Assembly (NCBI GenBank): GCA_003118195.1
Contig: BEXV01000513.1
Location: forward strand, 26,482-90,481
Direction of reading: 5' to 3'
Source of the DNA: Hemicentrotus pulcherrimus
Taxonomy: Eukaryota > Echinodermata > Echinoidea > Camarodonta > Strongylocentrotidae
Length of the DNA: 64,000 nt
A program made the translations under genes and the position numbers. This document shows positions 3,536-28,590 of the stretch, piece after piece. A model generated the notes under the pieces. That model saw only the letters and a program-made list of their open reading frames with translations, had not been told where the DNA came from and did not search any database. Positions within the stretch are counted from its first letter, which is position 1; each line of letters opens with the position of its first letter.

Positions 3536-3541
3536 TTTATT
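3536..3541 (-). terminator. Candidate polyadenylation signal AATAAA for the echinotocin mRNA
   Basis: Reads AATAAA on the minus strand, about 255 bases past the stop codon, and is followed by T-rich sequence. An ATTAAA variant lies at 3703-3698. Either would give a short 3'UTR that includes an 11-base poly-C run (3687-3677). Only the motif is visible; the real cleavage site is not. Confidence 0.4.
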
Positions 3542-3795: not shown

Positions 3796-3947
3796 TTATT
3801 GATCCTGCATGTTCAAAAGTAAATCGAGAAGTTTAACCCGGAGGTCTTTCCTCGTCGAACCGTTTTCCTCTCGACTCATCTGCTCAAATCTGCTGAGGGA
3901 GTCATCCTCTTCAATCATCAGACAGGATGCATCTTCTGAACAAGAAT
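3796..3947 (-). CDS. Echinotocin precursor exon 3: neurophysin C-terminus and copeptin-like tail
   Basis: The acceptor TTTTATCTTCAG lies just above 3947. The exon supplies the last two bases of a split Asn codon, then SCSEDASC (neurophysin cysteines 13 and 14). Spacing matches the vertebrate CCNDESCVTEPEC block: CC-N-S-N-S-C here. A 41-residue tail follows, first acidic (IEEDDS), then with an N-x-S sequon (N144-G-S), then leucine-rich LRVKLLDLLLNM, ending MQDQ and TAA at 3798-3796. The match to neurophysin rests on two cysteines plus exact phase and frame, and the sequence is open back into the intron only as low-complexity. No other exon in the 2.2 kb below exon 2 fits. The tail has no dibasic site between neurophysin and the leucine-rich part except R148-K149. 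Confidence 0.92.
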
Positions 3948-6900
3948 CTGAAGATAAAATGAAACAAAGGGACAGAGGAGGGGAAATAGGGGGAGAAACA
4001 GAGAGGAGAGGGAGTGGGGAAAAGGGAGGAAGAGGGAAAAGGAAGAGGGAGGGAAAAATAATGGAACAGAGGTGAAGAGAGAGCGAGAGGGAGGGGAGAG
4101 AAAGAGGATAAAGATAGAGGAGGCAAGTTTGTATAAAAGGGGGAAGAAAACGGAAGGGGAGAGGTGAAAATGAGCGGTAGAGAAGTAGATCGAAAAAGAA
4201 GACACAGAGAAATGGATAAAGAGAGTAAGAGGGAGAAAGAGAGAAAAGAAGCAGATGAAAATGTAGAGATGGCAAAGGAAAGAGGAAAGGGGAGGATGTG
4301 GGATGGATCGAACAGCAGGAGAGGATTGGAAAGAGAGAAAGATTGTGAGAGCGGAAGAGTTAGAGAGACGGGAGATCAAGAAAGGAGGATAGGGAGGAAG
4401 AGGAGAGAGGGAACACAAAGAGATGAAGAGAAGAGAAAACGGACAGAGCGAAGAGGGATTAGTGAAGGGGGTGGAAAGGGTAAAAGAAGGAGAGGGAGAG
4501 GATGATAGGAAATGAATCAGGTTTTAGTTCATTGTTTGAAATAGCCAATAAATTGTTATTCATAGCCAATAAAGATACATTTTTCTATAATTTGATGTTA
4601 TAGATTCAATCCATTAATTAATAGCAGATAGTTGACTATCCAATAATTAAAGTGTATCAAACAAAACTGTCAACCTTAAAACAACATTTAAATTCTTTTT
4701 AGAAAAGGAATAAGGAGGGGCTTCTAAGATTTTAAAGATAAATGCAATTACTAAATTTAAAAAATGATAAGGTTGGTTAAACGCAGTGGGTTTATTATTC
4801 ATGCTTTAAAAAAAAATCCACTAGCAGTTTCGTATTCTGGTTTTCATTTCAACATTCCATTTTTTCTCCATCTAAATTCTTAAGATCCACTCTCTGATTA
4901 TTATTCATCGTCTAAGCTAACGGGGTTTGGGATGTAATCCATTCTTTCAATTCCGCTGGAAGTGCTTGATAAAGGCAATTGTTTCCGTATAGCGAGCTCT
5001 GATCATTTCATTTCACGTTCAGAAATTTGAAAAGCTTTATTAGTTGAGTTGCTAGTGGCGCACAAGAGAGATATGACATTTTCTGTCTGACAAATGAACG
5101 ATTCTCATCTCAGATTTTCCTTTCCTCATCTTTCTCTATCATTTAATTCATTGCTTGCTTCTTTTTTCTCTTTATGGACCCTCCATCTATTTTGTAATCT
5201 TCCTCTTACTCGCATTTACATTCTCTTTTATCTCTAATTTTGTGCTTCTACATGTTTTTCCATCTATCAATCGAATCGATAGCCTGTAAAGGTTCTCTTG
5301 TTGTCTCGTATAATCACACTTTGATTCTTTATTTTTCAAAGGTATCACGTCCTGTACCAATAATATAACTATTCCATGTTTCATTTTTCCAAGTGACTCT
5401 TAATCTGCGATATAATTAAATCTGTCAACATTTTTTTCATTTCAGGTTTTCAGTCCCACGTTAAATTATATTAATCTGACGATCTCTTATTCAATTTTTA
5501 AAAAAGTGTATAAGCGTCAGTGCAAGTGCGTAGAAATGTAAATCCCACGGTTCAATGTTTTAATTACATTTGCGACAAGTGACAATTTCAATCCCTTTCA
5601 TTATAGAATGGTACAAACCCACGTGCATAAAAAATGCAATTTCGTCATATTTCGCTTTATTTAATAATTTAATCCTGGTAAATAACCCAAATAAAATTCT
5701 CAATGTAAATTCATGAGCCCTACCGATTATTTCATCTTAGATCTCTCAGTGAGGGATGTTAACAAGCATGTCACTCCCTGGAATCAATCATTAGTCGCTT
5801 ATTCCTACTGTCAATAAAAAGCATTAATCAAATTAATACGTGATTTTTTAAGCCCAATTATTGAAGTTTGTAGGATTGTAAGGATAAAGAGATAGCCCTA
5901 CCGATGAGTACACTTTAGATCTCTCAGTTAGAGGGATGTTAACAAGCATGTCACTCCCTGGAATCAATCATTATTCGCTTATTCCTACTGCCAATAAAAA
6001 GCATTACCGGTAATCAAATTAATATGTGACTTTTTAAGCCCAGTTATTGAAGGTTGTAGAATTTTAAGGATAAAGAGATACTTATATATCACTTGTTTAT
6101 TAGACGGGACCAAGGGTTCAGATCAAGATCTTGCTGCCGATCTTCGCATTAGTTTCTAAAGGTTTCGGTATACTATGGATGGGATCGTATACTTACTACT
6201 ATTGCAGCATACACCCATTGCTCCACATGTCCCGCTTGGGACAGTCTGACAAGGGCTTCCTGGGAGTTCACATGGCGTTGAGATCTCGTTTTCTCGCATA
6301 CAGGACAGTGTGTGTTGTGTGTTAATGTGACAGCCAATAGTTGGTCCGCAGCAGATCCCCGGACCCATGCACCTTCCTACGCCGCCTGGTCCGCATTCGA
6401 GGCACTGAAAAGGAGCACAAATTCTTGCATTATGAATAGAAACAGTTATTAAACATGGGCAACAGGAGGACCTGGACCAAATGAACACCGATATGGGCAA
6501 AGAAGCGTTCCTATGGGGGAACTCTTGCACTAAATATCATCCTCCCACACACACACACACACACACCCACACAACGCCAGTGCGCCTGTTAACTGATATG
6601 TCAATGGTTAGGCCTACATAATAACGTGACTAAAGAGATGTGGAACTCTTTCATAATAGTGTTGACTGTGTAAAATTCGTGACGTAATATGTTACACACT
6701 GTGGACATGAAAAGATAACTGGAAGTGCACAGTGTGACCGTAGATCCGAAACACGTTTGTTTCAGTTCTGGACTATATTGAAATACTGTCGTAAAACTAG
6801 TTTCAAATTGCATGTGGACTTTTAACATTTTCACATAGCGTCCTAGCTTCAGGAACCTTGTGTTTGCTTTGATATTTCACTGTGTGTCTCGCTATGAATG

Positions 6901-9900
6901 CAGTAGGACACACTAATGCATCAAAGAAGGTTACAGAGTGTACATATCACAGTTTGACTCTGAAATAGATTTAAAAAGAGATTTTCAGTATTCTATTAAA
7001 GATTCCGATGAACAAAAATAACTTAGACGTCACACTAACTTCCTTTTTTTTCTCCTGGTTTTGGACAAAAGTTTTTCCAGCGTCGAATATAATCTTAAGT
7101 GGAATACGGGCCAAGAGTTTGCACGCTATTTTCAATGTCAAAGTTTTATCTAGTTTCATTAATTTTGAGTGAAGGATGGCTTATATGAGATGGCATTGAT
7201 TTGAAGCGTCATAAGAAAAAAGCCATAAAAAATAACTAGCTGACGGATAACAAAAGTCTGAATATTTCCGGAAACACAAGCTAGACTATCGTCATACTTT
7301 GTTTCGCCGTTTCCGCAGCGTTATGCATTCCTGCCGAAGAAGATGGTCCTATTTCAATCGCCTAGTCTACATGTGTGTCACTTATTATTGCATTGATAAC
7401 ATCTGAAATGATTGCTTTAGTTTTCAACCCTATAATCTAGATCATTAAATGAGGTAAATTAGATTGAATGTTGAATGTTACCGCAAGCCTCCAACCCTAA
7501 ATGTTGAATGTTTTAACATTCTCTAAAAACAATACCATGTGTATATGATAATATTGTCTTCGTCATATAAGAAAGAATGACACGTTACGTAATACGAACA
7601 AGAATTCTATTGATTATACCACCGCGGTGTTGAAATTGCTTGAGTTGATTTTGCAAAAGTTCTAGCGATTCGTATTACATTAGTCAATGAACTCATTCTT
7701 AACAGCACATCTAAAAACGTTACTCTTCCAAAGTTTTGCGAGCCTATAATTATAAGGAACCACGTAAAATAACTCGAAGGAGCCATATTAGACAAACATG
7801 TATATATGTATAGTGCAACGAAAATCAATCCTGCGGATGGTCCACATCTAATGCGGGACGTGCACCGCGTGCTATCTTCCAAAGTGTGTCTTTTGACGAG
7901 GTGTAATGTGCTTGGCACCCGGGTCATATATATCTTCATCAAGGCATCGACGTCATTCCCAAACAGAACTAGTTTCCCCCTCGGGGAAGGCGTCTTTTTC
8001 AATCAGTCATATCCTAAATATATCGGTTTGTAGGTCATTTACGGCACGACCAGCCAAGCGACCTAAACACATCAGCAGAGGGGTGGCCGAGAAGGGGGCA
8101 TGGTCATTACGCCCCTTCCATTATGTTTATATCAACATTTCAGACCCGGTGAACATCAGGTTTGGCAAATCAGGAGTCAGGTTTGATCAAAGTTGGGGAA
8201 TGTGCGCCGACAAATGTGGGTGGTTTCCGTCAGTATCGTCTACTCCGGCTTCAGTAGAAGACAGTACAATATTTATTGTTGGACCTTTGCGAAAGCAGAG
8301 TATATAGAGGTTGTTGTACGCCATTTCACCTATCTACTCAAAATTAGTTACAACGAATAAAACATACTCCCTTCCATCCCTTTAAAATTTTCGCCTTTTT
8401 GGCCATTATTTATAGGTACCTGGTTTAAATTATAGGATTTACAAGTCGATATTTTTGTTTACACTGACCCCCCATTTTTACGACATTTTGATATTATGCT
8501 TCCTCCCACTTTGGACGATCTACCGCCATTTGACCGTAAATAGGTGACCTGACTTCAGAAAGAATAGCTAGTTTTGACAGTCGAAATAACGATAGGATTA
8601 AATTAATTGAGTTTCGCCGACCTTACACTTCATTAAAGCATTCAGACTTCTATAGTTTGATCACTTGAGTGTGTCAGATCGGGGCGAGGAAAAGATTACC
8701 AAAAGGAACAAGGATGACGTCATACCCAGGTGGACGTGTCGTTGCAGTGATTTCATCCATAAGTTTCGGGTTTAATAGTGGCAGCGTCACAGCAGAACAT
8801 AAGGAGAATGTACAAACGTGCCACACGCTGCTTTCCACTAATCAATCAAAGTGAGGAGCAAGTCTTTAAATAACGTTGTTTCCTGAGGTGCTAAGAGAGT
8901 GGATTGATAGCTCTTTAAAACTCTGAGACCTTTGTGTTTCTGAGACCCTAACTTAAAGTTTACCTTTCACCTAAAAATAATTTTGTGTACAGCTAAAGAA
9001 TGTTTAAAATCAACCTAAGAAAAAAAACTTCATCTGGCTTCCTATATGGGCTAACGGATAAGGAGTTTGATTAAAAAGAATTTAAAAAAGCATAAAACGG
9101 CGCGAACCCAAGTAGGCCTATTTCAGGCAAGCGATTTTACGGGTGCGTAGATTACCGAGTCGACTCATAAATCGCTCTTATTTTACTCGAGAGTGTTTTT
9201 AAACTTGCAAAATGTATTTACAGAATGATGATTTATACCTCTTATTTTGAATATAGTATTACGACGTGGAGCTACTAACATATAAAAAAAAAAAAGATTT
9301 CTTTGTGTGTGACTTGTACATTTTAATTACTATCGACGTATTTTTGTATCACTTCACGTTAAATAAAAGCACTTGAATTCGGAAAAATGTGCATCGTTTT
9401 AAATGTATAAAGGTAAATTCAGATCCATATAGTATGGTGTTTAATAGAAATATTATCGCAGTCCTCTTAATTCAAATTCTAGAATATTCGTTGTTTCTAT
9501 TTAGAAAAGATAACCTTATATATCCATTTTTTCTTTTATCGTAACGAAGAGTTGTTTTTTCCTTCAAATATTTCACAGCCTGCACGTATAGTAAAAATAT
9601 GACTAGGGTAGTATAGTAGATTAATGTTAATTTTTTTTTCGGAAGAGACATTTTATAGAAAGTCGTTCTAGTAAATACATTTTCTAAATTTGGACGTTAC
9701 AAAACATTTTTTAAAAGGCTAATAAGCTATAAATCTACACGGATGTGGTTCGGCCATGTTATGGAATTCAGCAGCAAAAACAGAAGAAGCACCAAACTTT
9801 TAATTAGGGCTTACCACATAATCACCTATCCCTCGACGCAGTCTCCTAAAATCCAACATCAATTTTCTTCCTAAAACCTCAGTGAATGACAGCTGGGAGT

Positions 9901-12900
9901 TTGAGATTACCAGAGAAACCAGTGGGGAAATTAAGAGAAAAGAGACTGGGTTCGATCGTAAAAAAGCTCCCATCAATGCGCGTCATTTTCGAGCACAACC
10001 AAGTGTAAAGTTTTAGGTCATTGCACTGATTAATCTACTTTCAATACTTTATAAAAACAATCAAAACCTATCGCATAAACTGGAGTACTAGTACCAGGGA
10101 TATGAGAGTTATTTGCAGGTTAAAAATGATATTTTGGAAATTCTCTACGGTTTCTGCTTCTAACTTTATTATATTACTATAAATGAACCTCCTGCTACTA
10201 ACCCTGCTGTTACATTGATGCGACTGGATGTACATCCAGCCAGTATTCCTAATTCCCATAACCATATAAATCAAACTTGTTATTCATTCATTTTTCCATT
10301 TTCCCACTTCCCAGTCTGTGGAAGTCTGGTAACACATAGCCAGTCTTCTGGGAAACTAGTTTGAAGTTTCCCTTCGAATTTACAAGAGGCGACTTCTTGC
10401 GTTCGTCGTAAATGAACATGATTCGGCTCAAATTGATGGAGCGACGTTTCAGACTTTTGGTCTTATTAACTAGTCATGTCTGATACTCGTCCTGCAATAC
10501 TGAATGGGACAAAGGTTACTTTCTTTACAATATTCCCTTCTATTTGTCATCAATCGCTTCAATTTAAAGAAAATTTATTCGAACGACTGAAGAAATTTGA
10601 TTAACTATAACACCATAACTATTCGAGGCGATGTTATGGCGTACGTCACATAATTTCATTTATTACTCTAACATCAATTACGGTAGAACAATAGTAGAAC
10701 ATACACGTATGTGTTATATGTATACAGTCACATACATTTACTGATCATGTAAATTTCTGATGTTTTAACAACAAACGTGAGTTATACAATTTCACCTTTA
10801 TAGATAATACCAGAGAAACCTGTCTGTGTAACGTAAAAGCACAACATATCAAACTCTTTGAAAAATGGTAAACAAGAATACAGCTCCAATCGAACTGATG
10901 ATTGTAAAGTTGAATAGAATAAAGATCTTCTGGTATAACTTTACGACAATTTTTTGAACAACATATCAATTAAGATATTTTTATATTGTATAATAATTTC
11001 ATTTTGTTTTTCTTTTTTACATTTTGAGACTCTTATTTTTCAAAGAGTATTCAGCCGAAAGAATTCTGATTTTGTTGTTGAAAAACAAATTGCTTTTTTT
11101 GCTTTCAAGGGTGGTGCTCAAAGAACAATTCGTGTTCGGAATTGAAAATTATGCTCACACTTTAGGATCCAGAATTTTTCGAAAAGTACGAAAACATATT
11201 CAAGCTTGAAGGAATATACACAATAACATACTATCCATGATTTCACTTTGCACCGGAAGAACTGTAGATTAATTTTTTTTAATCATTAATGATAAATGTC
11301 AATCGCTTTTTTAAAACACCGGGCATGTAAGAAAATGACCAACGATGACTGTTATGTTCGTGAATAAATTGATTGTGTTGACGTTCGTGTCGATGACTGA
11401 TTTTGGATGGTTTATCAGGGGGATTCCACTTTAATAATAGGATCTATCGATTGCAAAAACAAATTAGTGCAACGAGGCACACATTATACACCGACAGAAC
11501 GTTTTGACCCATGTGGCTTATCTTGTCAATACACTTTTATAATCAAGCGTGTGTGCGCCAATGTGATGTGCGTTGGCGGTGTGTGGGTGAACCTGAATGT
11601 GTGTCATAAAGATCATGAAGGATTTGCCGTAGCTTTTATTTGCAGTAAAGTAAACAAAAAAATTGAATTTTAAGCCGTAAGTTCATTTCGGGCTCGTATT
11701 TCAATTTCACGAGTATTATTTTTTTAATACTAAATAGACTATGAATCAATATTTTTTACTTTAGAATTTTTACAAACATTCTACATTAAAGTGATCTGAA
11801 ACCTAACTTCTGTTAAGTCCGGGATACATGAATTCTGAAGAACAGCAGTTCTACTCTATTAAAAATATATGCATTTATTCATGAGTACTTTAGAACCGAT
11901 CAGCAGAACGAAATGAAGGGATCAACAATAATTATTGCAATGACTGTATAACTTATCAGATCATAAATCTTATTCTATATAAAAGGCAGTTAACAAATCT
12001 CAAAAAAATTGAACAAAACTTTTGAATAGCAAAGAACAATATACAAAAAAGAGAAAATACAGAGAATAAAAGAGGAAAAAAAGAGGAACAATACCATGAG
12101 GGTGGAAGTTGAGTGGATGAGGTGCGCGCTCACCGAATCCAGCAATTGTGGAATAATAAGTAAAAGTAAGTGCAACATTACAAAAGTGATTTCGTGTTGG
12201 TCTCACGGAAATAGTACAAAAGTAAATGAATTGTGGTACACAACATTGCGTTTTGGTTAATTCTGCCACTGTGGTTGCTACTGTTTAGTCTGCTTGCATT
12301 TCAAAAAATACAAAGATTATGTCGGGATATTAAAAACTCTAATTGTAAAGTACATCGAAGACCGTTATGTAAAAACAGGTGTTACGTGGCCATACTTTAG
12401 TGCATCGGCATTTAATTAAGGGATAAGAGCACAAAGCTACAAACTATTACATTCACAAGAAATTGTGTCAGCCTGATAAACTGGATCGTCTAAATCGATG
12501 TTTGTAGCCCAAAAGCATAGTCTTCAGGTCAGGGTCCAGCTATTATTACGCTGGTCTGTAGCCTTAGCTTAAGCATGTTTGACAATGTTCGTGTTGGATA
12601 ATAAGCGAGTTCGAAAATAGCTCTGGACCGCATGACCCCAAAATATCCACAGATCTTAGACACGATGGATACTTCCCACCTGTGCATTTTAGAATAATCA
12701 CTGCCAAAATGATGGAGGTGCTTCATGAATACATTTTGTTTGCCTCTTGAGAAGAATACTTTTCACCTGTGTATCAGATAAATGTTGATGGTTGATTGTC
12801 AGTTAATTGAAAAATTTATGTCAAATTCCACAATAATTATGTATACACGCATAGAGACTATGTAATGGTATTATGCGTTCGAAGAACTGAATATTATTAT

Positions 12901-15900
12901 TATTATTATTATGAATACTGATTACATAACTTTCATGAGCACGATACAAGTATTCGTCTCAATGGTTTTACAATTTGGGTCCGAATGACCCTTATCTGCA
13001 CATGCGCAAATTCTTATTACGAACTCGCTTATAGAGTTGCAGGGGAAATGATGTAACAGCAGAGTGGTGTAGTATCATAGATACAAATTAATTTATGTTC
13101 AACAGTTGTTTTATATGCCGCATCTTTCTTCAAAAACAAAGTAAAGCGCAATTTATGTGGCATATTAGATAATATTCCTTCAAGTGGGTTTGTATTTCTA
13201 ACTATTTTTTAACGACTTCAAACCACCAGTATAACATCTCAAATCCTCAAACTAGTTTGAAGCTCTAAAACTAATGTAATCATCTTCACACCATAATTTA
13301 TGGAATTTGTCTTGTTTACTTTTGACGTTTTTCAAATGTTATTTTACAGAATAACCAATTACTCTTGGTAGTTGTTTGTTTACCTGGCAGCAGCAGGTAT
13401 TTCATGACTAAGTTGAAGATAATTGTCTTCCTTTATTTCGCCTAAGTTCACACGTTAATATTTGTAATCGATGCACCACTACTTTAAAGAAGAATAACCA
13501 AGTGGCTAGTGATCAACTGTATAATGAATAAATATATATACACATAACCTTTAATACGTGGTACATTAACATGACATCTATTTATAACCCTAAATGGAAC
13601 ATTAACAGGACACCATAACAACTGGTATATTACCCTAACCCAAACCCTAAATAAAAAAATAAAAAATATGAATAATTAAACTAATGACTAATGATTAAAC
13701 CTATTGTTTTTCGGGGAGGCCTTTAAGGTTCCTCTGCCTGCAAATATCCTGCTAATGACCATGTCTACTTAATGNNNNNNNNNNNNNNNNNNNNNNNNNN
13801 NNNNNNNNNNNNNNNNNNNNNNNNNNNNNNNNNNNNNNNNNNNNNNNNNNNNNNNNNNNNNNNNNNNNNNNNNNNNNNNNNNNNNNNNNNNNNNNNNNNN
13901 NNNNNNNNNNNNNNNNNNNNNNNNNNNNNNNNNNNNNNNNNNNNNNNNNNNNNNNNNNNNNNNNNNNNNNNNNNNNNNNNNNNNNNNNNNNNNNNNNNNN
14001 NNNNNNNNNNNNNNNNNNNNNNNNNNNNNNNNNNNNNNNNNNNNNNNNNNNNNNNNNNNNNNNNNNNNNNNNNNNNNNNNNNNNNNNNNNNNNNNNNNNN
14101 NNNNNNNNNNNNNNNNNNNNNNNNNNNNNNNNNNNNNNNNNNNNNNNNNNNNNNNNNNNNNNNNNNNNNNNNNNNNNNNNNNNNNNNNNNNNNNNNNNNN
14201 NNNNNNNNNNNNNNNNNNNNNNNNNNNNNNNNNNNNNNNNNNNNNNNNNNNNNNNNNNNNNNNNNNNNNNNNNNNNNNNNNNNNNNNNNNNNNNNNNNNN
14301 NNNNNNNNNNNNNNNNNNNNNNNNNNNNNNNNNNNNNNNNNNNNNNNNNNNNNNNNNNNNNNNNNNNNNNNNNNNNNNNNNNNNNNNNNNNNNNNNNNNN
14401 NNNNNNNNNNNNNNNNNNNNNNNNNNNNNNNNNNNNNNNNNNNNNNNNNNNNNNNNNNNNNNNNNNNNNNNNNNNNNNNNNNNNNNNNNNNNNNNNNNNN
14501 NNNNNNNNNNNNNNNNNNNNNNNNNNNNNNNNNNNNNNNNNNNNNNNNNNNNNNNNNNNNNNNNNNNNNNNNNNNNNNNNNNNNNNNNNNNNNNNNNNNN
14601 NNNNNNNNNNNNNNNNNNNNNNNNNNNCCCCCCCCCCCAAAAAAAAAAGAAGAAAACACAACAACAACAACATGTTAATCGTATTTAAGAACCATTACAA
14701 AACTCAATTTAATTTCTATAGGAATATCTACCGAGGTGGAATTAGATTTGTATTGATTAAATGGCGGGAGCTGCATGTGAAAGGCACAGTCATTTCAAGT
14801 CTCTATAACGAGGTCTATAATTCTAAGATATCATTTGCACCTTGAATTAATTCCAATCAATTCGATTTCAAAGAAGCTTTTATTAATTAATGACTGGCAG
14901 TAAGAAATTGAATTGTACATGTTTTTGTTTTTTTACAGTGCAAGTAAAATATGATATTTATACAAATTGCAACAAAAGTTAAATAAAAAATTGTTGATAA
15001 AAGCATTATCATTGAATGGAGCTCTTAACTTCGCACTGGCTTACAATCACGAGCGACATCGTATTCGGGTGAATAAATAGATTGCAATAATGATGTTAAT
15101 AAATCTTTAAAGTAAATAAAAGGCTGTTGATAAAACATTATTATTGAATGGAGCTCTTTGCTTATAGCACTGGTTAACAAGTAACAACCATCAGCAACAT
15201 CATATTCGGCAACATGCAATTTTTCATCACGTAGACAACGTTGTATAAACAACACTAAAAAGGTCGTCTCACGTGGTCTTGTGTGTCCCCCATGGGGGTT
15301 TGTTCACCCCCATCTACAATAATCCACGAACCCTATTGATGATATGTATTTAGTGCAATAAAGCCCTCCAAATCCCGGTCAGGGGGGAAGAAATTGAAGT
15401 GGAAAGATCAAATCGCGAAGAGGGATCGGAAATAAATGGGTTCGATCAATATGATAATCCCGGTTTTTTCGTCACGAATATAAACTGGATTTCATATTAG
15501 GGGTAACCCCGTGCTCAGAGATAAAGAACAAACGTCAATCACAGATAGAACCTGTTTAAGTAGATTCTTAGGGCTTAGTATATTTATTGGAAGTGTAGCA
15601 ATACTCAAAAAAATACAGGGTGACTCTTGTAAAGCCATTGTTAAAGAATTAGGCTACAACAACACAAAACAATATGTTGTTTTCGCGACGAGTAGAAAAT
15701 ATCATTTTCTTACTTCATCTGGCTAGCTTATTTCTTTTCACGGCGTAATCTAGTAAGGAAATATTAGACTATTATTAACGGCTTGAGATAACTTGCTGCC
15801 CGTTTATCACAATGAGAAAACATTTTTTTCGAAAGTAATTTTGGGATGGCTGCAAATAACGTACCTACATCAGACGGACGGAAAGATGCATATTCTCGAG

Positions 15901-18900
15901 GTACTTGTATCTTGCATTTGATAATTAAAATGAAAATTTATATTTTGTTTCGGAATCTTCATTAGCAGGGAAGGTACTCTGGAGGATTTGTAGTGGGCTA
16001 GAAGTTATATTTAGGTTCAGAAGAAATAGTTGTTATCAGTAAAACTGTAAAAATCGAGGAATTATTGTCTATTCTATAAGCAGTTGTTAACATAAAACAA
16101 ATTGCAGACTTTTTTTCTTCTGTCCCGTTTTTGGCAGATTTTGCTTCCTCTCGGCAACTCCCCCCTCCCCCCACCCATCTCTCCTCCACCCTCATTCTCA
16201 TTTTCCTTTGAAGGAAACACGCGGTGGGCTTCATGGTTTAGGGCCAAAGGATGTAACAACTGGTTTCCTGTCAATATAAATCCCAACATAGCTTCGAAAA
16301 AGCCAGTGTAAAATGCCTCTTCATGCAAGAGCATCAACATTTCCGTTCCCTTAAGACTACCTTTGCTCGAACACCAAATTTTTTTTCACAGACTTCCAGT
16401 AGAACAGCGTATAGAATATTAAATGTTACTGCTTACTTTACCGTTTACTTCATTACCTTGTCCCTTCATATATTTCCTGTCTCATTCATCTTCCTGTAAC
16501 TATTATGTCTCACGTCTTCTATATCCGTGAACCTTAAACTACTCATATAATCCAGAACAACGAGGCACTGGGTGACATAACATGTATTACTGCTACACCC
16601 CTGCTCAGTAATCATACCCCGAAAAATATCATTAACATCCGCTCAAAAACGTCCTCAAAAATAGACAAAAAGTCCTCAAAAATCGAAAAACTATCTGAAA
16701 TCAAAATATTTTAACTCATTTCCTTACTTTTCGCAATGTTAACAATTCACGGATATAACTTGTAATTTGTTTAACTGTTTTGACGAGTCTTTTGTATATT
16801 GTTCGGCGCCTTGAGGCTTTCCTTTTTAAATTTGTATGTGCGCATTAGAAATCTGCGCTTTTCATCTTCATAATCCATGATTATCATTATCATTAGTATG
16901 TATCGGCAACAATATTTGTCATTACTCATGTGCTTTAATATCCTGCAGGATGTATAAGAGGTCGATTAGAGCCCTAAGGAATCAAACACATAACATAGAA
17001 TCTAATTAGCGATCCCTGGTAATAAAATCTCATTTTCATCCTTCTTTTATCTTTGTCTCGGCATCACATTATTTCCACCATTGTCATGAAATGCACTCAT
17101 CATTTTTTGTTTTCCTTTTTTCGTTTTGTTTACCCTCATCCTGTTGGTGTATTCATTTTCCTATTCGGATTTCATTTCCGAGTGGCTCCCGCTCCTTCAC
17201 TGTTACATATTACATTTATTGGCTCGTGTTATATTTCAATTTGAACCAGATTCTGGAACCAAGTCAAGTTGAACAAAGGGCTATGTCCCAGTCACACCAA
17301 GGAGACCGACCCCCAGCCCGTCTAAAGACCGAACAAATTAATACATTACCCCCTAAATAGCCAATAATAGGTCGATGTGGAGTTGGTTTGGCGGTAAGAC
17401 TGAAGTATCAACTCATATATCGACTCGTCCTCCTTTTTTTAAACTCGACTCATGACCTAGTTTGAACACAGAAGTTGGCGTGGTGGGCTTAAGTATTCAG
17501 TAGAATTCGGGCCTCTGAGGATTACAGTGTTACTTTTAAATATCAATTGGGATTAGTAATGTCATTGCCATAACATTTTCCAGGCGGAGGAACTGTGCGT
17601 TATGAATATTTTATTCAATAACAAACACGTAGGCCCGTATTCACAACGGAGGTTTGTGGACAAACCAGGTTTGATCAAACCAAGGTTTGTACAAACCTTG
17701 GTTTGAGCTCAAACTAGGTTTGTCCACAAACCCATCCCACAAAGGAAGGTTTGTACAAACCTAGGTTTGAGGACAAACCTTGCTTTGTGAATTCGGGCCG
17801 TAGTGAATACAACATCTGAAAGAGGGGAGTTGTGCATGACATGAGGGTGTTTTGAACCAGTCATCCAGGGATTGAAATTGCCCTACGAAATAAATTCAAA
17901 AAGGAAAGCACAGATTAAGAAATGGAACTCATTTTGCGATGGATTTTTCCTCGAAGATTTTTTAATTCAAATTTACGATACGGGTTTTTTATCTTAATTT
18001 ACGATACGGGTATGTCACAAAAGGGACATGTTTCGTGCGTGATTCCAGCCTTCACCCTGTCTCCAATTAACAGATAATTAACTCTCCAAATGATGTAGCT
18101 GTTTGTCAATGGTCAACGGACAAGGGATAGTTGTCAAAGAGAATAATTGTTGTCAAGGCATCGGGGAAAGGCCTGCCGCACAACAGGCGGGAAACGTCGA
18201 TCAAAATGAAGCAATAATGAAGCGATCGCCTGGGCCCCGGGACGAAGACGCACGGGCTACGTTTTGTTTTATCAGAATGTTAAAGACAGCGCTGAATCAA
18301 CAGCGAGGGGCAACTCTATTTCCAGTTGTTGCTGCGAGCTATGAGTTGGTATGTTTGGCCCCAGAGCTAGAAGCCAAACGTTGCAACCGCGAAATGAATT
18401 CTCCACCCAGAGAAACACTCTCAAAGACTATCTTGCAGCAATACGTCATCTTCTCACGCTGGTAATAAGCGTTGACTTCCCTGCGTTCAACACGTGCCCG
18501 TTAATTGTCACATTGAGTTCAATTGAACCGGTTTTATAGCTACATTTTACGATATCACTGATTGAATATGCCTCGGAAGATGTGAGACAGTAATTCAAAA
18601 TATAACAAACCCTTGTTTTTGCTCTCGTCCGTTGATTTGTACAATGGTAAACGGTTTCGTTAGTACTTATACGATGGTGAACTTCAAGTGCTTATCATCT
18701 ATGAAAATGCCATTATCTGCAATGCCCATTGCACGTGAGGCATCGATTGTTTGACGTATAACTGCGCCAGCGACTGCTACAGTATTGACGAGCCATGCGA
18801 AAGAGACATCTTAATTAATGCACAATTAAAAGTGCAGGCATAGCTTTGAATTATACAGGCGTACACTCGCTATATGATAAATCAATGAATGTAAGAACTT

Positions 18901-21900
18901 CACTTTTATTTCACCCTGAGTCCTATTTTTTCAAGTTAGGCCTATCTGCATGTAAAAAGGGATTTATAGAAAGCAATGATGATATCAACAGAAAGAATAT
19001 CAATATTATAATTAAGAAGTGAAGAAAGAACAGTACCAATATTATTTTCTGTGGGTAATTGTGTGGATTTGAAGAAAGAAGAGATTGGAGTTGAAGAATC
19101 ACAGAGGGGCAAGAGTGGTTGAACAAATCGACCAACAAAGCCCTCACCACCTCTAATGGTAGAGACATCTGCTGTTGTGCTCCCAGTAAGCGGTCAAGAT
19201 GGCATGAAGGACTCTTCACCAATCTGGAAGACCATTACACTTCAGGCTGAACCCTACCCCTAAAACCCTGCAAGCATCCTCCACGGGGATGGTAATTGTA
19301 TATTGCTCAACTTTTCCTTCTCAGAAAAAGTAAGATAATAGTTTAAATGACGTTTGAGAACAAAGTTCAATGGCATGATTGAAATTTGACTGGTCACCAG
19401 GGAGAACTGGTGAAAAACTCGCTAAGATTATATAGACCGATGAATGCACTGGCTCACGCCCCAGTACCAAACCCTCCCCCGTAGGGAATGGCAATAGGGA
19501 ACTTACTAATTTCAATGTATTGGGCGCAATAACTCAGGTGGTTGCTTAATTGTGTATTCATACCTATAGACAGCTCTCTCTTGCATCTCTATCATGGTAA
19601 TAATACTTTCCCACTCATGATATGTTTGCTGCCAGATAATTGTTTTAAGATGAAGCAAACGTTTACTTAACTTAATAAATGAAAGCAATGTTGTCAGAGG
19701 TTCATACTATACTCTCAAGATCACAACATTTATACGAAAAGAGTTTAACAAACGTTCAATACAATTGGGTCGTTTGTAAGTTCTAACAAGTACCATGAAT
19801 ACAATATCATTTTGGGAATTAGACTATAGGCGATTCAAATAATGCAAAGAGATAATGAGTGGAGAAGGATGAAGGAGGTTAGTATCGATCATCTTCTTTC
19901 CACGTTACCTTTACACTTCTATCTTTATTTATCTATCTCTATCTCTCTCTCTGTCTCTCTAGTTCTTTCTATCATTCAATTTCTTCGGCGTACACGGAGA
20001 CGGTCATTTGCACCAGTGGCCTTTTGCTACTGCAATGGACAAAATGTATACATTCATAGTCGCACTAATTTCATTTTTGACTAAATCTTTGCAACATAAA
20101 CAGTACTCTGACAGATGTTTGCATGGTCTTATTTTACCCTCGTTTTATGATTTACGACATACATATTTCAGGCTAAACTTATATGAAAATGTTATTCGTT
20201 CAAATATACTAATTATATCTATATCTAACTCGAGGTTAATACATAATCTTAATGATACATGCAAAAGCGTCTGATACTTCAACGAACACTTTGTCGGGCA
20301 TCTCGCATATTTGAGGTGTTTTCCCCCATCTCATTGACACCATAAGGTGATCTAAATCTCATAGTTGTTTGGGCAGACTTGTTCCTTTCAAATACAGTCC
20401 ATTTTTTTGGTCTGTTTCTTCGATGATTCTTTTAAAGTCATATCCGTAAAGAAGAGCGACAACCGAGTATATGGCTGATATATACATTACATGTACTGTA
20501 TAAGGAAAAACTATATGATTTCATTAAACTTTATTAAATTTTAAAAATCCCCACAAGGGCGGTATTTTAGTTTTACCCATGATTAGCTAATTAGGCCAAA
20601 GAAAAGTTTTATTTATGTTCCGAAATTAGATAAATCTGATGGATTGTCTTGTTGGTGCTGTGCCTTGATTATATTTAAGGTAAGGCGATGGAAATTGACA
20701 TCTTTGTTACGAATTCCTTAAACATGTGATGTGACCTTTACTTTTTTATGTATTCAACCTTTTCCATATGCAGCTGACCTACTAAAGTCTACCTCAAAAT
20801 CTACGTCGACAAGAAAACGAATGAATGTTTATGACTTGAAAAACGGACTTCTTAAAAACGCACCCATTAAAAAATCAGAACTTTCTCTGATCACGATCTT
20901 ATCACGTCTCTGGATCTGTTGGTGACGACACGAGGTGATGATTGAAATTCAGGGCAATTGAAATTCTAGCAATTCGATCTTTTAGGGGGCATGATGTAAC
21001 ACAGGGCTTTCCTCCTGGAAGGTAATGTGTCCCAGAAAGGGCCTCCGTATGAAAGTCCAATTAATGGTCATGGACTCAGGGAACTTTGATGCAAGATGTA
21101 TACAGGGTGCTGCAATGACATTGTTTAACATTATATTATTCCACCAGCTTGACATAATTGTATTTGCTGACGTTACTATATCACGTGACAGCACAGACCT
21201 GTTGAAGAGCAGTCTCTGACTGGAACAATTATGTAAAGGTGCATGTATTGAAAAAAATCCGTCAGGGTTTACTCAAAATATTCTTATATCTAAGAGGCAC
21301 ATTCATGGATGCCAGGTTTACAAACCCCCTCACTCTAAAAGGAAATAAAACGTATAACATACAAATAGATAAAATAACTTAATAAATTCGGCAATCAACA
21401 AGAAAGGCTTCAAACAACCTCTCTTTTTAAAATGTTTACAAACGTGAAAGAAAAACAAGAAAGTTGAGAGTTGAAAATATAAATACAGTTATCCAACTGC
21501 GCGACGCCATTTCATTTTTATAATCAAATTTGTATTGGCTGATATGGATTGGACAAAATGGCCAAATCAATCATATCAGCAAACATATTTCGTCAAAGAA
21601 AGGCTTCAACTCTGCAAACGAATACTGTCCATCCATACGCGAATCTTTGGAAGCAATCTGGCCAGAGTTTACATACTTCGGCCTCTACAAATGCTGAATT
21701 CGATTGCCCCTGCCCCTGCCCTTTCATTTTTACGTTCTTCTAACACCATAAGTGCTTGGCTTTGAAGAGCCTGACAGAACTTATGTTAGCAGAACACTCA
21801 TATTTAAAGCCTCTAGAAAAGACAATTGTATTGATATATTTAAACTTATTGAATCTATTAACAGGTTTTGACGTCATAGTGTATGTCAATTGAAATTAAT

Positions 21901-24900
21901 TCTATTTTTTTGTGTGGTTTGATTCAACAAACGTTTAATTTCCCTCAGGGAGACATTTAATCGTCTGTGCTGTGTCTTTCGGCGCATCATCAACGGCTGC
22001 ACGGTTTGGGAGAATATCTTATTGCATGAACCGCTAGCTAGCGAGAGATTGACATCTACATTGTATTAAGTAATATCCTGTTAATTCAGACCTCTACATC
22101 ACAAGTGACAATTCAGTTCTCGAACATTTCCAAAGCATTCAATTTTAGATGGAAAATGGGTCAACCTCAATTTGTGGTAATTACTAGGTCTTATATTTTT
22201 TCAATAACAAGATGATGACACAATAATACACGGTCAATCAATAGCATGAAAGCTAGTGATGGTTGTGAATCTGACTAATTATGTACCGATGTCGAATGCA
22301 TTGCCTGCTGCAAGGAACAGAACATTTCTAACTCGTTTTGAATTAACGACTATAAGAGGTTGAGGTAGAAAGATAGTGGTTCGCAAAATTTGCCGCATCA
22401 TACAATCTGGAGTAGATATTGAACTAGTACGACTTTAATGCGTCGACTTGTTATAATAATTATAATAATCATCCTCTTTTAAAGTCCACTCCAAATTTAT
22501 TAAACCGAAAATGGAAATCCTTTTTGCTCAATTAAATGTGAGCCCGGCAGCCACTGAGCAGCGCCAGATCGACGTTTCTCTATCCCTTATTGTTGAACGC
22601 CAAACAAGGTAGCAGCAACTCCTATATATCCCGTCTTTTAACGTCTTTTGGTATGACGCGACTGGGGTTCGAACCCACGATATCCCGGTTGTGAGGCGGA
22701 CGCTCTACTGGCTGAGCCAATACACCGGCTATTACGAGTCTTACAAGATTAACGGGTATGGCACAACTTGTTGATCGTGGTCTTAGCCTAAATTTTTCTT
22801 TTTTAAGTAAAAGTTTTCATTAATTAACAATCTAAATTGAATCGAAAACTTTACACCATATAATTATTTTTTTGTCCACTAATAACCTAAAACTTTTGTT
22901 TATAATAATTACCGGAAGCGCAAATTTAATCAACGTATTTCCCGTAAAAATGCGACGATGTTAGAGCTAGCAAGATTTGTTGTTGATGATGCATCAAGGC
23001 TCTAAACGGATCATTGTCATGTTTGGTGCAGGGTCGCTTAAAGAATTCCAATTAGCCGGTCAACACCCTCTGTACCGTGTGTGTGATTAGCTAGCCTGGT
23101 CATAATGTGACTGCAACAGTTTTCGCGCTCTAAACCTCCCGTTAAGCCTCGCAAATAGCCGCTGGGTGTGATCGATTATGGGGATCGGGTGAACCTGGTG
23201 CTGATGATGACTGGTTAACCTCTGTCATCATCCGACTAGTAACAGCTGCCTCAATGTCACCGACCCATTACCAATCCTGCTCTCACTTTACACACCATTG
23301 AGAAAGATAGCGGGCGCGCGTATTAGCCGCACGATGAAGGACAGTGGCGTTTAGTTTCCCCAATTACACATCCGTTCAACTGGCAACATGCTTGGTCACA
23401 GAGTAGAAGGGATGAGTCGCACGTGCGCCGCCGTTAAAGAATGTGCCAAGTGTTTTTTTTTTTCCTGTAGCGAGTGGCTGTATATCATGAATCATACGTG
23501 AGAAATCCACTGTGTCCTGAATGTCATGACTAAAAATAGATCCATGGCCTGAAGTGTGAAACTGTCATTAAAAATAATTACATACGGATGATGCGAAGAT
23601 TTTTATAACACACCTGTCAAACTTGACAAAATTCTTCTTTCACAAAATGAAATCAAGTGATAATTCCGAGAAAGAAATCTGTCAAAATTCATTTTTGTGA
23701 GAGATCGAGCAGTGATACCCGCCAACTGCTTTAATAAAGGTTCTGAAACATTGGAATTCAGGGTCATGATTGCCGAGCCACATATCTTTCCTCGGCCTGC
23801 TTATTATTAAAGAGACATTTTGCCACATTAAATTTTTACGACATGTTGACTCTTTTACTAAGGCCGGCTCTGGGTCTTGCCTCTTTCGTCCCAGCTGGTT
23901 CAAGACTTTCACCTTGATCTTGTTCTTTCTACAAGCCTCATGAAGGCACGATGGTCGTGGTCGAGTAGTGATCTCGAAACCAAGTCGATGGGCTAGTGAT
24001 CTTTGTCATGTTTGGTAAAGCACTAACGCTCATTTAATTTAGCAAGACCTTCGGAAAGGACTCAAAGCCGTTATGGTTACAAGAATGAATATGCTTTCTA
24101 AGCAGTCATGTTAAACAACCAACAACAACAAAAAACAGCAAGGTTTTATTATTCCAAGAAATCATGATGTCTCTTAATATGAGGATACTTCCGAATTAAT
24201 CATTACCATTGCCGACACTAGCATAGGTGGTGTTCAGTTCTTTAATTGCTGGTGCTCGTTTGACTGGTATTTATTAATTTCTGACAATCATTTTATCTTT
24301 TCATAAAATAAGCTATTCCTTCTTTTGTTTCTGCTTAATACAAAGCGAAAGTGTTGGCGATATTCATTTCATTTTTTTTTTCCTAATTTGTTTCGTTATG
24401 CATTTAGCATCTACAAATATTATATGCATAAAACGCAAAATATATGTTACACTTTCAGTCTTCATCTTTGTCATATTGCAACCTAAGAAAAATAATGAAA
24501 AGTTTTAGTGTAGTGTAAAACCAAATTCAGAAGATGAATCAGAATTCTTGAAATCCTATTGCTTTCTGTCCAAACAAGAAGCTGTAGATTATGCAGCCTT
24601 ATTACCATATAAATTGATCTTGTTTCTGGGTTAGTAAAAATATCCTTAGTTTTCAAGGAGGACCCATCACAAAGAAGCTGGAACATTCGACAGAAATGTA
24701 GAGAAAGCTGCAATTTGAATTACAAATCCTGTAATTATAGTTTATTGTACTGAGATTAGCTAATATGGATTGCAGTAGTTAGTCAAACGCTTTTTAGGGG
24801 GTGTCCAGAGAATCAACGTTTTTGTCTTCATATCTTCTGTAACCTGTCATTTTGACAACATTTTTCATTAAAAAGTTAACTGAATATCACTGGGCTATCA

Positions 24901-27900
24901 GTCTGAAGTAAAATGTCAACTTCTTCAAATTTCTTATTCCCATTATCCCCTCACGTCTTCATATGCATTACTGTCTTCTTTGAAAATAAGATAAATTTAA
25001 AAGAATACAAAATATATCGTCCAATCTCCCCTAACTAAAAATCCAACTAGTGTTGAGTAGGTAAGGTCGGCACAAATACAAATCGATGGATTAGCATTAA
25101 AGTCAATTCCAGCACGGCGGCCATTTTAAAAAATATATCCAAATATTGAATAATAAATCAATTCATGAAGGATCCTATACTTCCTTAATCCGAAAAACTT
25201 GAACAAAATATATTGAAACAAAATACCGGAGCTTATTTGAGTAGATGAGAATTTGTGGGGATGACGACGTCTCGCCTCCCTCTCTCACCATGTTTGAAAA
25301 TGTACAATAACTATAATAGTAATACAATACGTCGGGGGGGGGGGGGGNNNNNNNNNNNNNNNNNNNATTTTTATTCATCCTGTACGCTACTTGGAAAAAC
25401 CTAGTCAATCATTTAAGGCAGCGATTATCACACTTACGTGTAAATCTTATTGACTGAACAAATAAGAAAATATTATTTGTATTTTCCTTTAGCTTGAGGT
25501 AAGTAAGATTACCATTTGTGTACAGGAATTCATTAGATGGTTACGAAAGCCGAAGTAATACTATGAGTCAAAGCTTTGTGTTCTCAGGAGAAAAAAAAGC
25601 CGCTTCATGCCTTTATCAACCCGAGTTTCAAAAATGATTCGACATCATGGAATGTAGAATGATCCGGATAAATTATTTCGGCTTGATTCTCTTTAGGCAT
25701 TTCCCGATTAGTTATTAGTTATTTCATAATTTCGTTCAATGAATTTCCAAAGATCTTACCAATATATCTCTGTTATATTTCCTGCATTTCTTTATGCATT
25801 CGCCTCTGACGAGGTGGATCATCTTTCAACCTTGATGCACTTTCCAGGCAGCTAGCTACCACATTTCACGGTTATATGCAAAGTTTGGAGCTTTGGCAGT
25901 ATATGATTCAGAATCAATTACGACATTTTTTTACCATACATGATGAATGCTACAAGTGCCATAGGCTGTCCATCTATTGCCCAAACAATTACATGGTCTC
26001 AGAGAGAAAATTGAATTGCACCAAATGGCATGGAAGCTTTAGGTCTATAGAAAAGGGAAAAGAAAAGGAATGGCAAATGCCACTTATCAGAAAAAGGGAA
26101 TGAAAGATAGAGACAGGAAGCTATTTAGAGAAAGCGAAAGAGAGGACACGAGAAAATTACATTCATAATTTCCTCTTTTACTTTCTCACTCTACCGTGCG
26201 TATGGGATTTTAAAAAATAGATGGAAGGCTCATTCGGTAAGGATTTGAGGATATACCGCCTGTAATGGACGTTACTGCTTTGGTTCAGACACTGGTCAGT
26301 GAAAAGACAATCTAACATCCAGTCCGTCCGACATCCATTCAAGAAAAGAAGGTGGTTGAACCAATGGCCCTTAAGGGCCGATCTAGGATTGTCGAATTCA
26401 AGGACAAAGAATGTTTAAAACAGCGTCCTAGATCACCTAAAGGCATAGCATAAATGTCCTTTTATGAAAAGGCACAAAGGCCATTTTCTCCTTGTATTCG
26501 ATGTAGGAAAGAGCCATATGTAGATCTATGTCTGAACCTGATTTAAGACGTAACTACCATTAAGGTGGACAATGTTCCGTATGTGAAGATTTAACATTCA
26601 ATTTGTTCATAACCATCTAACTTCACAATACATTTAACATCAAGGACTAATGCTGTTTATTAGATTAATGTTCTGATATATAAAAATAAGTAATGATATA
26701 ATGGCACTAAATAGATGCTCTATTTGAATAGTAATGAATAGGCGATTTTTTTTTGTTCACAATTTCTATATGATTATCATGAACATTATGATGAAATCAT
26801 TGTGTTCGTCCTCATTTATGCCATGTACTTAAAAAGACCAAGTTGAATTATTTTACAAGTGTAAAATAATCATCACCTCGTGTTTAAGCAGACTGTTTAA
26901 TGGTAACGTAGTTTCATCAGGGTCAACAAAAGGGAGGTAACAATCTTCCTGTATTAAAGTCGTTATACAAAAACGTCATATTATAAGTATCTAGATTTTA
27001 ATTTTAAGTACTAAGAGCTTTATAATTTCAGTTCTATTCCTCTTTTTGTTTCTACTTCAATAAACGTGTTGAGAATTACTAGTTTGAAAGAAGAAGAAAA
27101 AAACGACAGCAGAAAACCTAAATTTATTTTTCTTGTCACAATATGAAGCTTTGAGTGATCGGTATTGTTCAAGTTTAACGTGTTACGATGAGTCAAGCGC
27201 AGTGCCCATCGAGATCCTTAAGCTCGAATGGACAATTTTTCCTGAGAGTATTTTCTTTTATTCAACCGTATGCTGATGCATCGTTTCCACGTTACTGTGT
27301 GTTTGAAAGCATACCAGGTCTAATTCACTTGACGCAAACAATATTCTGGTAATTTACAACACGATACTATGATATTTCTTTGACAGCCTGTTAGGCAAAA
27401 TACAAATTGGATCTTTCAGTGGTTGCTAATAGAGTATATCGTTGAGTTTTTTTTAAAGGGAAGTGTTTGACGTGTCTAAACGTATGCGAGGTCAAAGCTT
27501 GACTTATAGATGAAAATTTAATATAGACAATAACGTATAAGTATGTATTTATGGTATATATGTAGAAAGAGAGAAAAAGAGAGGGTGAGAAAATAGGATG
27601 CATTGCATAATGTTACCTTTCACCCTTATCTCTCCTTCTTTCTTTCTCTCTCTCTCTCTCTCTCTCTCTTTAAGAGTTTTTATTTCTCTTCTTTTCCACT
27701 GCAAGCATGAGACGATATTGATTTGCAAATCTCGTGACAAAAATATCTTTTTTGAAGAATTTCACTATTAATGTAATATGGCATGACAAAAATCATCTTT
27801 CAACTTTCGAAAGAACTACACCTGGACCGGTTTATAAGTAGACAAGAAAGTAGTGACCATCACGACCGACGTGCATCTCTGTAAAAATAACACTCCATTA

Positions 27901-28558
27901 AAATCTTTAAACTTAAATACACAAATAACATCGACCTGCCCGACACCAGGTCGACAATATTAAACGTACGGTAATACATTACTCGCAATACTTTTTATTC
28001 TCTTGTCAATTATCGGTCGATTTTGAGTCGGTCTTGCGATGTGATTGGGGGTAAACTGATTTAGTCAGACCAACCAAACCATCTTCATATCGACAGATTC
28101 TTGGCCAATAAGGGCTGGTCAAACATCACCGATAAAATGAACAAAAAGGAAATATTTGACTAAAGATACACACTACTACGCTTTGTGTACGTTTTGTACC
28201 CTCTTGTAGTAGGTCAGATTTAGCAGGCACCTTTAATTGAAGATTTTGTTATCGTTATGGTGATGTCTGACCAGAACATTAGGGATTATATTTATTTTGT
28301 TCCCGCCTTTTACTTAATTTTATTTGATGTTTATTTATTACAATGAATCAACATGTTTCTTATCTTATAACTTTATAACTATGTTTGATAATCACATGGT
28401 ATATGCAGTAATAAACTTACCTGTCTAAGTGGACGAGAATTTGATCTTTTACCCCCCTTTGGGCAGTTGGAGATAAAACAGGCAAAGCTCCCCCCTATCC
28501 ATAGAGCCAGAACCAGTGACAAAAACAAACAGGTGACTATACTCTTGACGGACATCAT
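3796..28558 (-). CDS. Echinotocin (vasopressin/oxytocin-type) neuropeptide-neurophysin precursor, whole coding locus of 3 exons
   Basis: Coding exons 28558-28421, 6404-6197 and 3947-3796 join into a 165-residue secretory prepropeptide. Residues 1-26 are a signal peptide and 27-35 are CFISNCPKG, with the family's Cys1-Cys6 ring. Residues 36-38 are GKR: the Gly donates the C-terminal amide and Lys-Arg is the convertase site. Residues 39-124 are neurophysin with all 14 cysteines, and 125-165 form a C-terminal extension. The nonapeptide is the echinotocin described from sea urchins, a myoactive neuropeptide acting through vasopressin/oxytocin-type GPCRs. Both introns begin GT and end AG, have good consensus sites on the minus strand, and keep the frame (phases 0 and 1). 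Length and domain order match the family. No frameshift or in-frame stop is present, so the gene looks intact. The strand is fixed by signal peptide, splice sites and exon order together. Confidence 0.96.
3957..4505. repeat. 550-bp polypurine (plus) / polypyrimidine (minus) tract
   Basis: Nearly uninterrupted GA-rich sequence on the plus strand with only scattered T and C, not a clean short-period microsatellite. On the gene's sense strand it is CT-rich and ends about 10 bases above the exon 3 acceptor. Long open frames on both strands here are low-complexity artefacts. Confidence 0.9.
5717..6080. repeat. Tandem duplication, two copies of about 180 bp
   Basis: Copies 5717-5894 and 5895-6080 begin gccctaccgat and end aggataaagagata. 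They share the internal block gggatgttaacaagcatgtc. Differences are scattered substitutions plus small insertions. The duplication lies 115 bases below exon 2, inside intron 2. Confidence 0.92.
6197..6404 (-). CDS. Echinotocin precursor exon 2: neurophysin core
   Basis: 208 bases, encoding 69 codons plus one base. It opens with CLECGPGGVGRC, the family's C-x2-C-GPGG-x-GRC signature, continues GPGICCG and ends GVCCNS. This gives 12 of the 14 neurophysin cysteines (residues 47, 50, 58, 64, 65, 71, 81, 91, 98, 106, 112 and 113 of the precursor). Neurophysin binds the hormone non-covalently and guides it into the regulated secretory pathway. The acceptor is a pyrimidine run ending CTTTTCAG just above 6404 and the donor is GTAAGTAT (6196-6189), leaving phase 1. 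The borders match vertebrate exon B, which starts at the same Cys and ends two residues after the CC pair. On the plus strand the region is antisense with no coding meaning. Confidence 0.96.
6546..6566. repeat. (CA)n microsatellite
   Basis: About ten CA units, continued by an interrupted CA-rich stretch to 6575. On the sense strand it is a TG run about 140 bases before the exon 2 acceptor. Confidence 0.9.
13775..14627. other. Assembly gap (853 N)
   Basis: Unknown sequence inside intron 1, followed immediately by a run of 11 C and then about 10 A. Nothing can be said about its contents. The long apparent open frames across it are artefacts of N. Confidence 0.99.
14993..15209. repeat. Imperfect direct duplication of about 80 bp
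   Basis: 14993-15067 and 15126-15209 share gttgataaaa, attgaatggagctctt, the block around cactgg, and a final catcgtattcgg/catcatattcgg. They are separated by 58 bases. Confidence 0.75.
16780..16896 (+). mobile_element. LINE/SINE-type 3' tail fragment
   Basis: Contains ggcgccttgaggc, then tgtgcgcattagaaatctgc and an ATT/ATC-rich end. This is the layout of 3' ends of echinoderm non-LTR elements (GCGCCTTGAG ... GCGCATTA-AAT ... ATTATT). No coding part is preserved nearby. This is a recognition by pattern only. Confidence 0.4.
17275..17420. repeat. Diverged dispersed repeat, copy A (partner near 47.1 kb)
   Basis: Shares with 47095-47225, in the same order, gaccgaaca, attac/attact, ccccc...aatagcc, ggtcg, ggagttg and cggcggta (here ggcggta). 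This is an old pair of copies of one unknown interspersed element. Confidence 0.5.
17632..17799. mobile_element. Palindromic MITE with 3-bp GTA target duplication
   Basis: 168 bp, almost completely self-complementary. Ends are GGCCCGTATTCACAA and TTGTGAATTCGGGCC. The interior is made of repeated AGGTTTGT/ACAAACCT words on both strands. GTA flanks both sides (17629-17631 and 17800-17802). A second copy lies at 52920-53062. A 3-bp target duplication is typical of PIF/Harbinger-type MITEs, but the superfamily is inference. Confidence 0.82.
22452..22730 (-). mobile_element. tRNA-derived SINE
   Basis: Minus-strand head at 22730-22656 has a Pol III box A (TGGCTCAGCCAG, 22719-22708) and box B (GGTTCGAACCC, 22675-22665). 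The unrelated body includes gaaacgtcgatctggcgctg, and the 3' end is an ATTATT-rich tail (22470-22452). The head lacks a clean cloverleaf and is followed by a body rather than a T-run, so it is a SINE, not a tRNA gene. It lies in intron 1 in the sense orientation. Confidence 0.85.
22940..23430. promoter_or_regulatory. Less AT-rich, non-repetitive patch in intron 1: candidate cis-regulatory module
   Basis: About 490 bp with visibly higher GC than its surroundings and no open frame of interest. It lacks repeat signatures and contains CpG-bearing words such as gggcgcgcg and cacgtgcgccgcc. Such islands in large introns are often conserved regulatory modules, but nothing here proves function. Confidence 0.2.
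25348..25366. other. Assembly gap (19 N) after a poly-G run
   Basis: Fourteen G directly precede the N run. The apparent minus-strand frame through it has no meaning. Confidence 0.99.
27639..27670. repeat. (TC)n microsatellite
   Basis: A pure TC run followed by a T-rich stretch, within intron 1. Confidence 0.9.
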
Positions 28559-28590
28559 AGCGATCGTCTCCAAGATGATCTTCTCTTCCC
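28421..28590 (-). CDS. Echinotocin precursor exon 1: 5' leader, signal peptide, hormone, GKR, start of neurophysin
   Basis: Coding part is 28558-28421 (46 codons). I chose the ATG at 28558, the first of two adjacent Met codons. It has G at -3 and gives a short N-region (MMSVKS), a hydrophobic core and a cleavage site ending S-F-A directly before the hormone Cys. The peptide CFISNCPKG is followed by GKR and SNSRPLRQ. The last three residues, L-R-Q, match the LRQ that ends neurophysin's first segment in vertebrates. The donor after the CAG codon is a perfect GTAAGT (28420-28415, phase 0). The frame stays open upstream to 28672. However, a pyrimidine-rich stretch ending TAG at 28591-28593 looks like a 3' splice site, so the upstream reading frame is probably not translated and a separate 5'UTR exon is expected at higher coordinates. 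The 5' exon boundary is inference; the coding part is certain. Confidence 0.96.

What the first reader, a model, noticed from the sequence alone, without database searches (positions are those of the whole stretch)
3796..28590. Complete echinotocin gene with both introns at the vertebrate vasopressin/oxytocin positions
Seen: intron 1 falls between Q and C of LRQ|CLEC in phase 0, and intron 2 falls two residues after the CC pair of GVCCNS in phase 1. Known: vertebrate AVP/OXT genes split neurophysin after residue 9 (LRQ|CLPC) and near residue 76 (CCND|E). Conservation of both positions across deuterostomes means the three-exon structure is ancestral, not vertebrate-specific.
Basis: partly seen in the sequence, partly recalled or inferred. 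Interest (0 to 1): 0.75.

Follow-up and report, generated by a model that had tools for sequence, protein, structure and literature searches.

The report
Sea urchin oxytocin/vasopressin-type hormone gene
This is the ordinary sea urchin gene for echinotocin, a relative of oxytocin and vasopressin; its coding part is cut into three pieces at the same two places as ours, as has already been published.

Summary
On the minus strand lie three coding exons (28558-28421, 6404-6197, 3947-3796) that join into a 165-aa precursor: signal peptide, CFISNCPKG-GKR, a 14-cysteine neurophysin and a short C-terminal tail. Intron 1 (phase 0) follows Q46, which aligns with Q9 of neurophysin II; intron 2 (phase 1) splits codon 116, which aligns with E77. 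Of 1,050 GT/AG combinations within 45 nt of the four junctions, this model scores highest against both known relatives. The precursor is 163/165 identical to a predicted Strongylocentrotus purpuratus protein and 136/165 to a Diadema one.

PMC10532012 (2023) reports three exons with a phase 0 and a phase 1 intron for S. purpuratus itself and four other deuterostomes; PMC2656470 (2009) reports amphioxus positions and phases identical to vertebrates; PMC3308954 (2012) reports intron sites in a beetle and an ant identical to human OT, so the structure predates deuterostomes.

Ordinary gene; low interest.

The parts
28421..28558 (-). coding exon 1: signal peptide (MMSVKSIVTCLFLSLVLALWIGGSFA), hormone CFISNCPKG, amidation/cleavage GKR, first residues of neurophysin up to Q46
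   Evidence: donor CAG|GTAAGT; 97.9% tblastn identity to residues 1-47 of P0001. The signal-peptide limit is by eye.
6405..28420 (-). intron 1, phase 0, 22,016 bp including 853 + 19 N
6197..6404 (-). coding exon 2: core of neurophysin, CLECGPGG...GVCCNS + first base of codon 116
   Evidence: acceptor ctccttttcag|TGC, donor A|GTAAGT; 97.2% tblastn identity to residues 46-116 of P0001
3948..6196 (-). intron 2, phase 1, 2,249 bp
3796..3947 (-). coding exon 3: end of neurophysin (N-SCSEDASC) and C-terminal tail ending KLLDLLLNMQDQ, stop TAA 3798-3796
   Evidence: acceptor atcttcag|ATT; tblastn to residues 111-165 of P0001, E 5e-24
3536..3541 (-). candidate polyadenylation signal AATAAA (starts at 3541, about 255 nt after the stop)
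   Evidence: 4 AATAAA/ATTAAA matches in the 1,200 nt after the stop; consensus match only, not evidence of use
28591..28620 (-). acceptor-like pyrimidine tract and AG (ttttcgttttgttttcttcattctccgtag) directly before 28590: likely end of a 5'UTR intron
   Evidence: by inspection, no transcript

Best explanation
The locus is the echinotocin precursor gene of a sea urchin, S. purpuratus or a close relative; no second neurophysin gene was found in the window. It is transcribed from the minus strand and spliced from three coding exons, and probably from one further non-coding first exon. It is translated as a prepro-hormone whose signal peptide is removed and whose nonapeptide CFISNCPKG is cut at GKR, amidated and carried by the 14-cysteine neurophysin. 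The peptide would then act through a vasopressin/oxytocin-type GPCR on muscle. The two coding introns are inherited from a bilaterian ancestor. Shown here: exons, frame, junction consensus, family. Inferred: splicing in vivo, processing, receptor action, the 5' exon, common descent of the introns.
For: Exons, splice consensus and open 165-aa frame. PF00184 full-length match. Solved neurophysin chains matched at E 2.5e-20 to 4.1e-18; all 8 distinct sequences listed at E up to 0.001 are named neurophysins. 2 proteins found at E up to 0.001: P0001, named by a source 'PREDICTED: oxytocin-neurophysin 1 [Strongylocentrotus purpuratus]' (163/165 identical), and P0002 from Diadema antillarum (136/165). 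Model best of 1,050 splice combinations against both. Published three-exon, phase 0/phase 1 structure in S. purpuratus and four other deuterostomes. Passages in PMC9793003 and PMC10532012 say that echinotocin contracts tube feet and oesophagus of the sea urchin Echinus esculentus (the original, Elphick and Rowe 2009, was not read).
Against: No transcript was available. P0001 is a predicted protein and may derive from the same genomic locus, so it is not fully independent; P0002 is from another genome. Intron 1 is long and holds two assembly gaps, so exons 1 and 2 are joined across a scaffolded stretch. The 5' end of the gene is not determined. Conservation is not universal in insects: in Locusta only the first exon of about 6-8 vasopressin genes is well conserved and the third exon could not be identified (passages of PMC4237046).
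Confidence: 0.97

Rival explanations
1. The exons belong to the paralogous NG-peptide (NGFFFamide) precursor gene, which also carries a neurophysin domain.
For: NG-peptide precursors share the neurophysin domain (passages of PMC3316597, and PMC8557429).
Against: The peptide after the signal sequence is CFISNCPKG-GKR with both hormone cysteines and no NG motif; both matching named proteins are called oxytocin-neurophysin 1 or 1-like.
Confidence: 0.01
2. A pseudogene or assembly chimera: exon 1 joined to exons 2-3 across gaps in the 22-kb intron.
For: Intron 1 contains 853 + 19 N and is much longer than the vertebrate introns quoted (75 bp to 5.57 kb; passages of PMC2656470 and PMC2315648).
Against: All three exons are open, carry intact splice sites, are near-identical to one S. 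purpuratus protein and co-linear with the Diadema protein; all lie on one strand in order.
Confidence: 0.02
3. The shared intron positions arose by independent (parallel) insertion in echinoderms and vertebrates.
For: Parallel insertion at preferred sites is known in principle (recalled).
Against: Both positions and both phases match; chance about 3e-5 under a uniform null; amphioxus, tunicates, starfish, sea cucumber and two insects are reported with the same or a matching structure.
Confidence: 0.01

Closest known systems
S. purpuratus echinotocin / oxytocin-neurophysin 1 (XP_003724490.1, P0001)
   Same: 163 of 165 residues, same length, no gap at either exon join; published three exons with intron phases 0 and 1 (PMC10532012)
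   Different: Two substitutions, S96N and S134K (window residue first): an allele or sister-species difference
Holotocin (Apostichopus japonicus) and the VP/OT-type (asterotocin) gene of Asterias rubens
   Same: Three exons, phase 0 and phase 1 introns (PMC10532012)
   Different: Hormone sequence (holotocin CFITNCPLG, PMC6586643); the gene sequences were not compared here
Vertebrate AVP/OXT and amphioxus [Ile4]vasotocin genes
   Same: Both coding introns at the same neurophysin positions and phases (the vertebrate intron 1 position is recalled)
   Different: Vertebrate introns quoted are shorter; the hormone differs; the C-terminal tails were not compared

Membership tests
vasopressin/oxytocin-type precursor | signal peptide followed directly by a Cys1-Cys6 nonapeptide and a Gly-Lys-Arg amidation/cleavage site | tested here: met
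   ...GGSFA-CFISNCPKG-GKR (signal peptide judged by eye)
vasopressin/oxytocin-type precursor | neurophysin domain with 14 cysteines | tested here: met
   16 Cys from the hormone onward, 2 of them in the hormone; PF00184 E 3.5e-21 over 79 of 79 positions; solved neurophysins
vasopressin/oxytocin-type precursor | coding introns: phase 0 after LRQ and phase 1 after CCN-x | tested here: met
   vertebrate intron 2 position read from a human AVP primer in PMC8440291; vertebrate intron 1 position recalled
vasopressin/oxytocin-type precursor | spliced transcript, processed amidated peptide, GPCR activation | not testable with these tools
   no RNA or peptide data at hand
NG-peptide precursor | peptide with NG motif after the signal peptide | tested here: not met
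   the peptide is CFISNCPKG

The most novel reading that the evidence does not exclude
The gene has four exons, with a non-coding first exon upstream of 28591, so the transcription start is separated from the hormone exon by a further intron, unlike the three-exon vertebrate genes. PMC8081664 describes the VT-like gene of three of four invertebrate species as having '3-4 exons' (passage), which would fit.
Probability: 0.5. Interest if true: 0.15.

Novelty: already known. Interest (0 to 1): 0.1.

Why it matters
It confirms from raw sequence that the hormone/neurophysin gene keeps two coding introns in register between a sea urchin and vertebrates. Because the same structure is already in print for S. 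purpuratus, other deuterostomes and two insects, it adds a confirmation, not a discovery.

Tried and rejected
Considered and rejected: the NG-peptide paralogue (peptide differs), a second neurophysin gene in the window (tblastn with P0001 and P0002 found none), and alternative splice sites (the other 1,049 combinations score lower against both relatives). Ten ORFs out of the 44 of at least 80 aa overlapping 31,000-64,000 were scanned with Pfam: 9 of 10 had no match at E up to 0.1, and 1 had a sub-threshold GPR158_179_EC match at E 0.054. So no neighbour gene was identified, and synteny with the published echinoderm neighbours was not tested. ARAGORN found no tRNA.

Gene structures of other species were not compared by my own computation. 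The DNA collections offered are, by their descriptions, viral, metagenomic, prokaryotic, phage, plasmid and E. coli records, and I searched none of them; those statements rest on passages of papers. Seven identical requests to the genome search (own genome, PF00184) did not complete because the machine was busy, so whether the NG-peptide gene of the same genome shares the introns stays open. Van Kesteren 1995 (PMC6577683) is not held, and the paper searches aimed at conopressin and octopressin led me to no statement of lophotrochozoan intron positions in the passages that I read. PMC6586643 marks the sea cucumber intron positions in figures, which are not held.

Full report
What is there. On the minus strand of the window three open segments join into one reading frame: exon 1 28558..28421, exon 2 6404..6197, exon 3 3947..3796. 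The donors are CAG|GTAAGT and A|GTAAGT. The acceptors are ctccttttcag|TGC and atcttcag|ATT. The 165-aa product reads signal peptide, CFISNCPKG, GKR, a 14-cysteine neurophysin and a short tail. That the name echinotocin belongs to this peptide sequence is recalled (Elphick and Rowe 2009, cited in PMC9793003 and PMC10532012, not read).

Is it real. Pfam Hormone_5 covers its whole profile at E 3.5e-21. All 8 distinct solved-structure sequences listed at E up to 0.001 are named neurophysins (that they are bovine is recalled). The protein search returned 2 proteins at E up to 0.001 from 20 candidates: P0001, given by a source as XP_003724490.1 PREDICTED oxytocin-neurophysin 1 of Strongylocentrotus purpuratus, and P0002 from Diadema antillarum. 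The window product differs from P0001 at 2 of 165 positions (96 and 134) and is identical to P0002 at 136 of 165. tblastn of both places the three exons at E 2.2e-17 or better, and the 4 other hits listed have E 3.3 or worse.

Junction test. The GT donors and AG acceptors within 45 nt of the four junctions give 6 x 5 x 7 x 5 = 1,050 models. In the alignment with neurophysin II Q46 aligns with Q9, and the codon split by intron 2 (N116) aligns with E77. Positions and phases 0 and 1 therefore equal the vertebrate ones. For intron 2 the vertebrate side is read from the human AVP primer in PMC8440291 (passage); for intron 1 it is recalled. Under a uniform null over 246 positions the chance of both matching is about 3e-5, a crude figure.

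What is known. PMC10532012 (2023; passages, section 2.1) reports three exons and a phase 0 then a phase 1 intron for A. japonicus, A. rubens, S. purpuratus, B. floridae and C. intestinalis, and discusses this as evidence of deuterostome orthology. PMC2656470 (2009; passages) reports amphioxus intron positions and phases identical to those of vertebrate genes, and three exons in Ciona and Styela. PMC3308954 (2012; passages) reports identical intron sites in T. castaneum, H. saltator and human OT. PMC8081664 (passages) finds a structurally similar gene with 3-4 exons in three of four invertebrate species, amphioxus being the exception with three copies. On the other side, PMC4237046 (passages) could not identify the third exon of the Locusta genes.

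Corrections. The range given (3796-28590) runs from the stop codon to the base after an acceptor-like AG. The sequence before it (28620-28591, ttttcgttttgttttcttcattctccgtag) looks like the end of a 5'UTR intron. If so, the gene is not complete within the range and 'three exons' refers to coding exons only. This is inspection, not proof.

Against and open. There is no transcript; P0001 is a prediction; intron 1 contains 872 N; the whole-genome tool did not answer in seven tries. The species of the window is inferred from 163/165 identity, not shown. Intron 1 (22 kb) is longer than the vertebrate introns quoted.

Verdict.

Noticed in passing
28591-28620 (-): Acceptor-like pyrimidine tract and AG 32 nt before the start codon: probable end of a 5'UTR intron.
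   Followed up: partly
22654-22726 (-): tRNA-like match (Rfam RF00005, 32 bits against a cut-off of 29, E 0.0092) inside intron 1; ARAGORN calls none. Possibly a tRNA-derived SINE or a decayed tRNA.
   Followed up: partly
29855-29865 (+): Exact tRNA B-box-like GGTTCGAATCC upstream of the gene (3 matches with up to 1 mismatch in the window against 0.59 expected); may mark another tRNA-derived repeat.
   Followed up: no
5751-6080: Direct repeat in two parts, spaced 180 and 186 bp, 91-97% alike, inside intron 2.
   Followed up: no
59475-59920: Direct repeat spaced about 220 bp, 98% alike.
   Followed up: no
39527-39820: Inverted repeat with 87-nt arms, 85% complementary, 120 nt apart: looks like a small inverted-repeat element.
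   Followed up: no
13775-14627 and 25348-25366: Assembly gaps (N) inside intron 1.
   Followed up: partly
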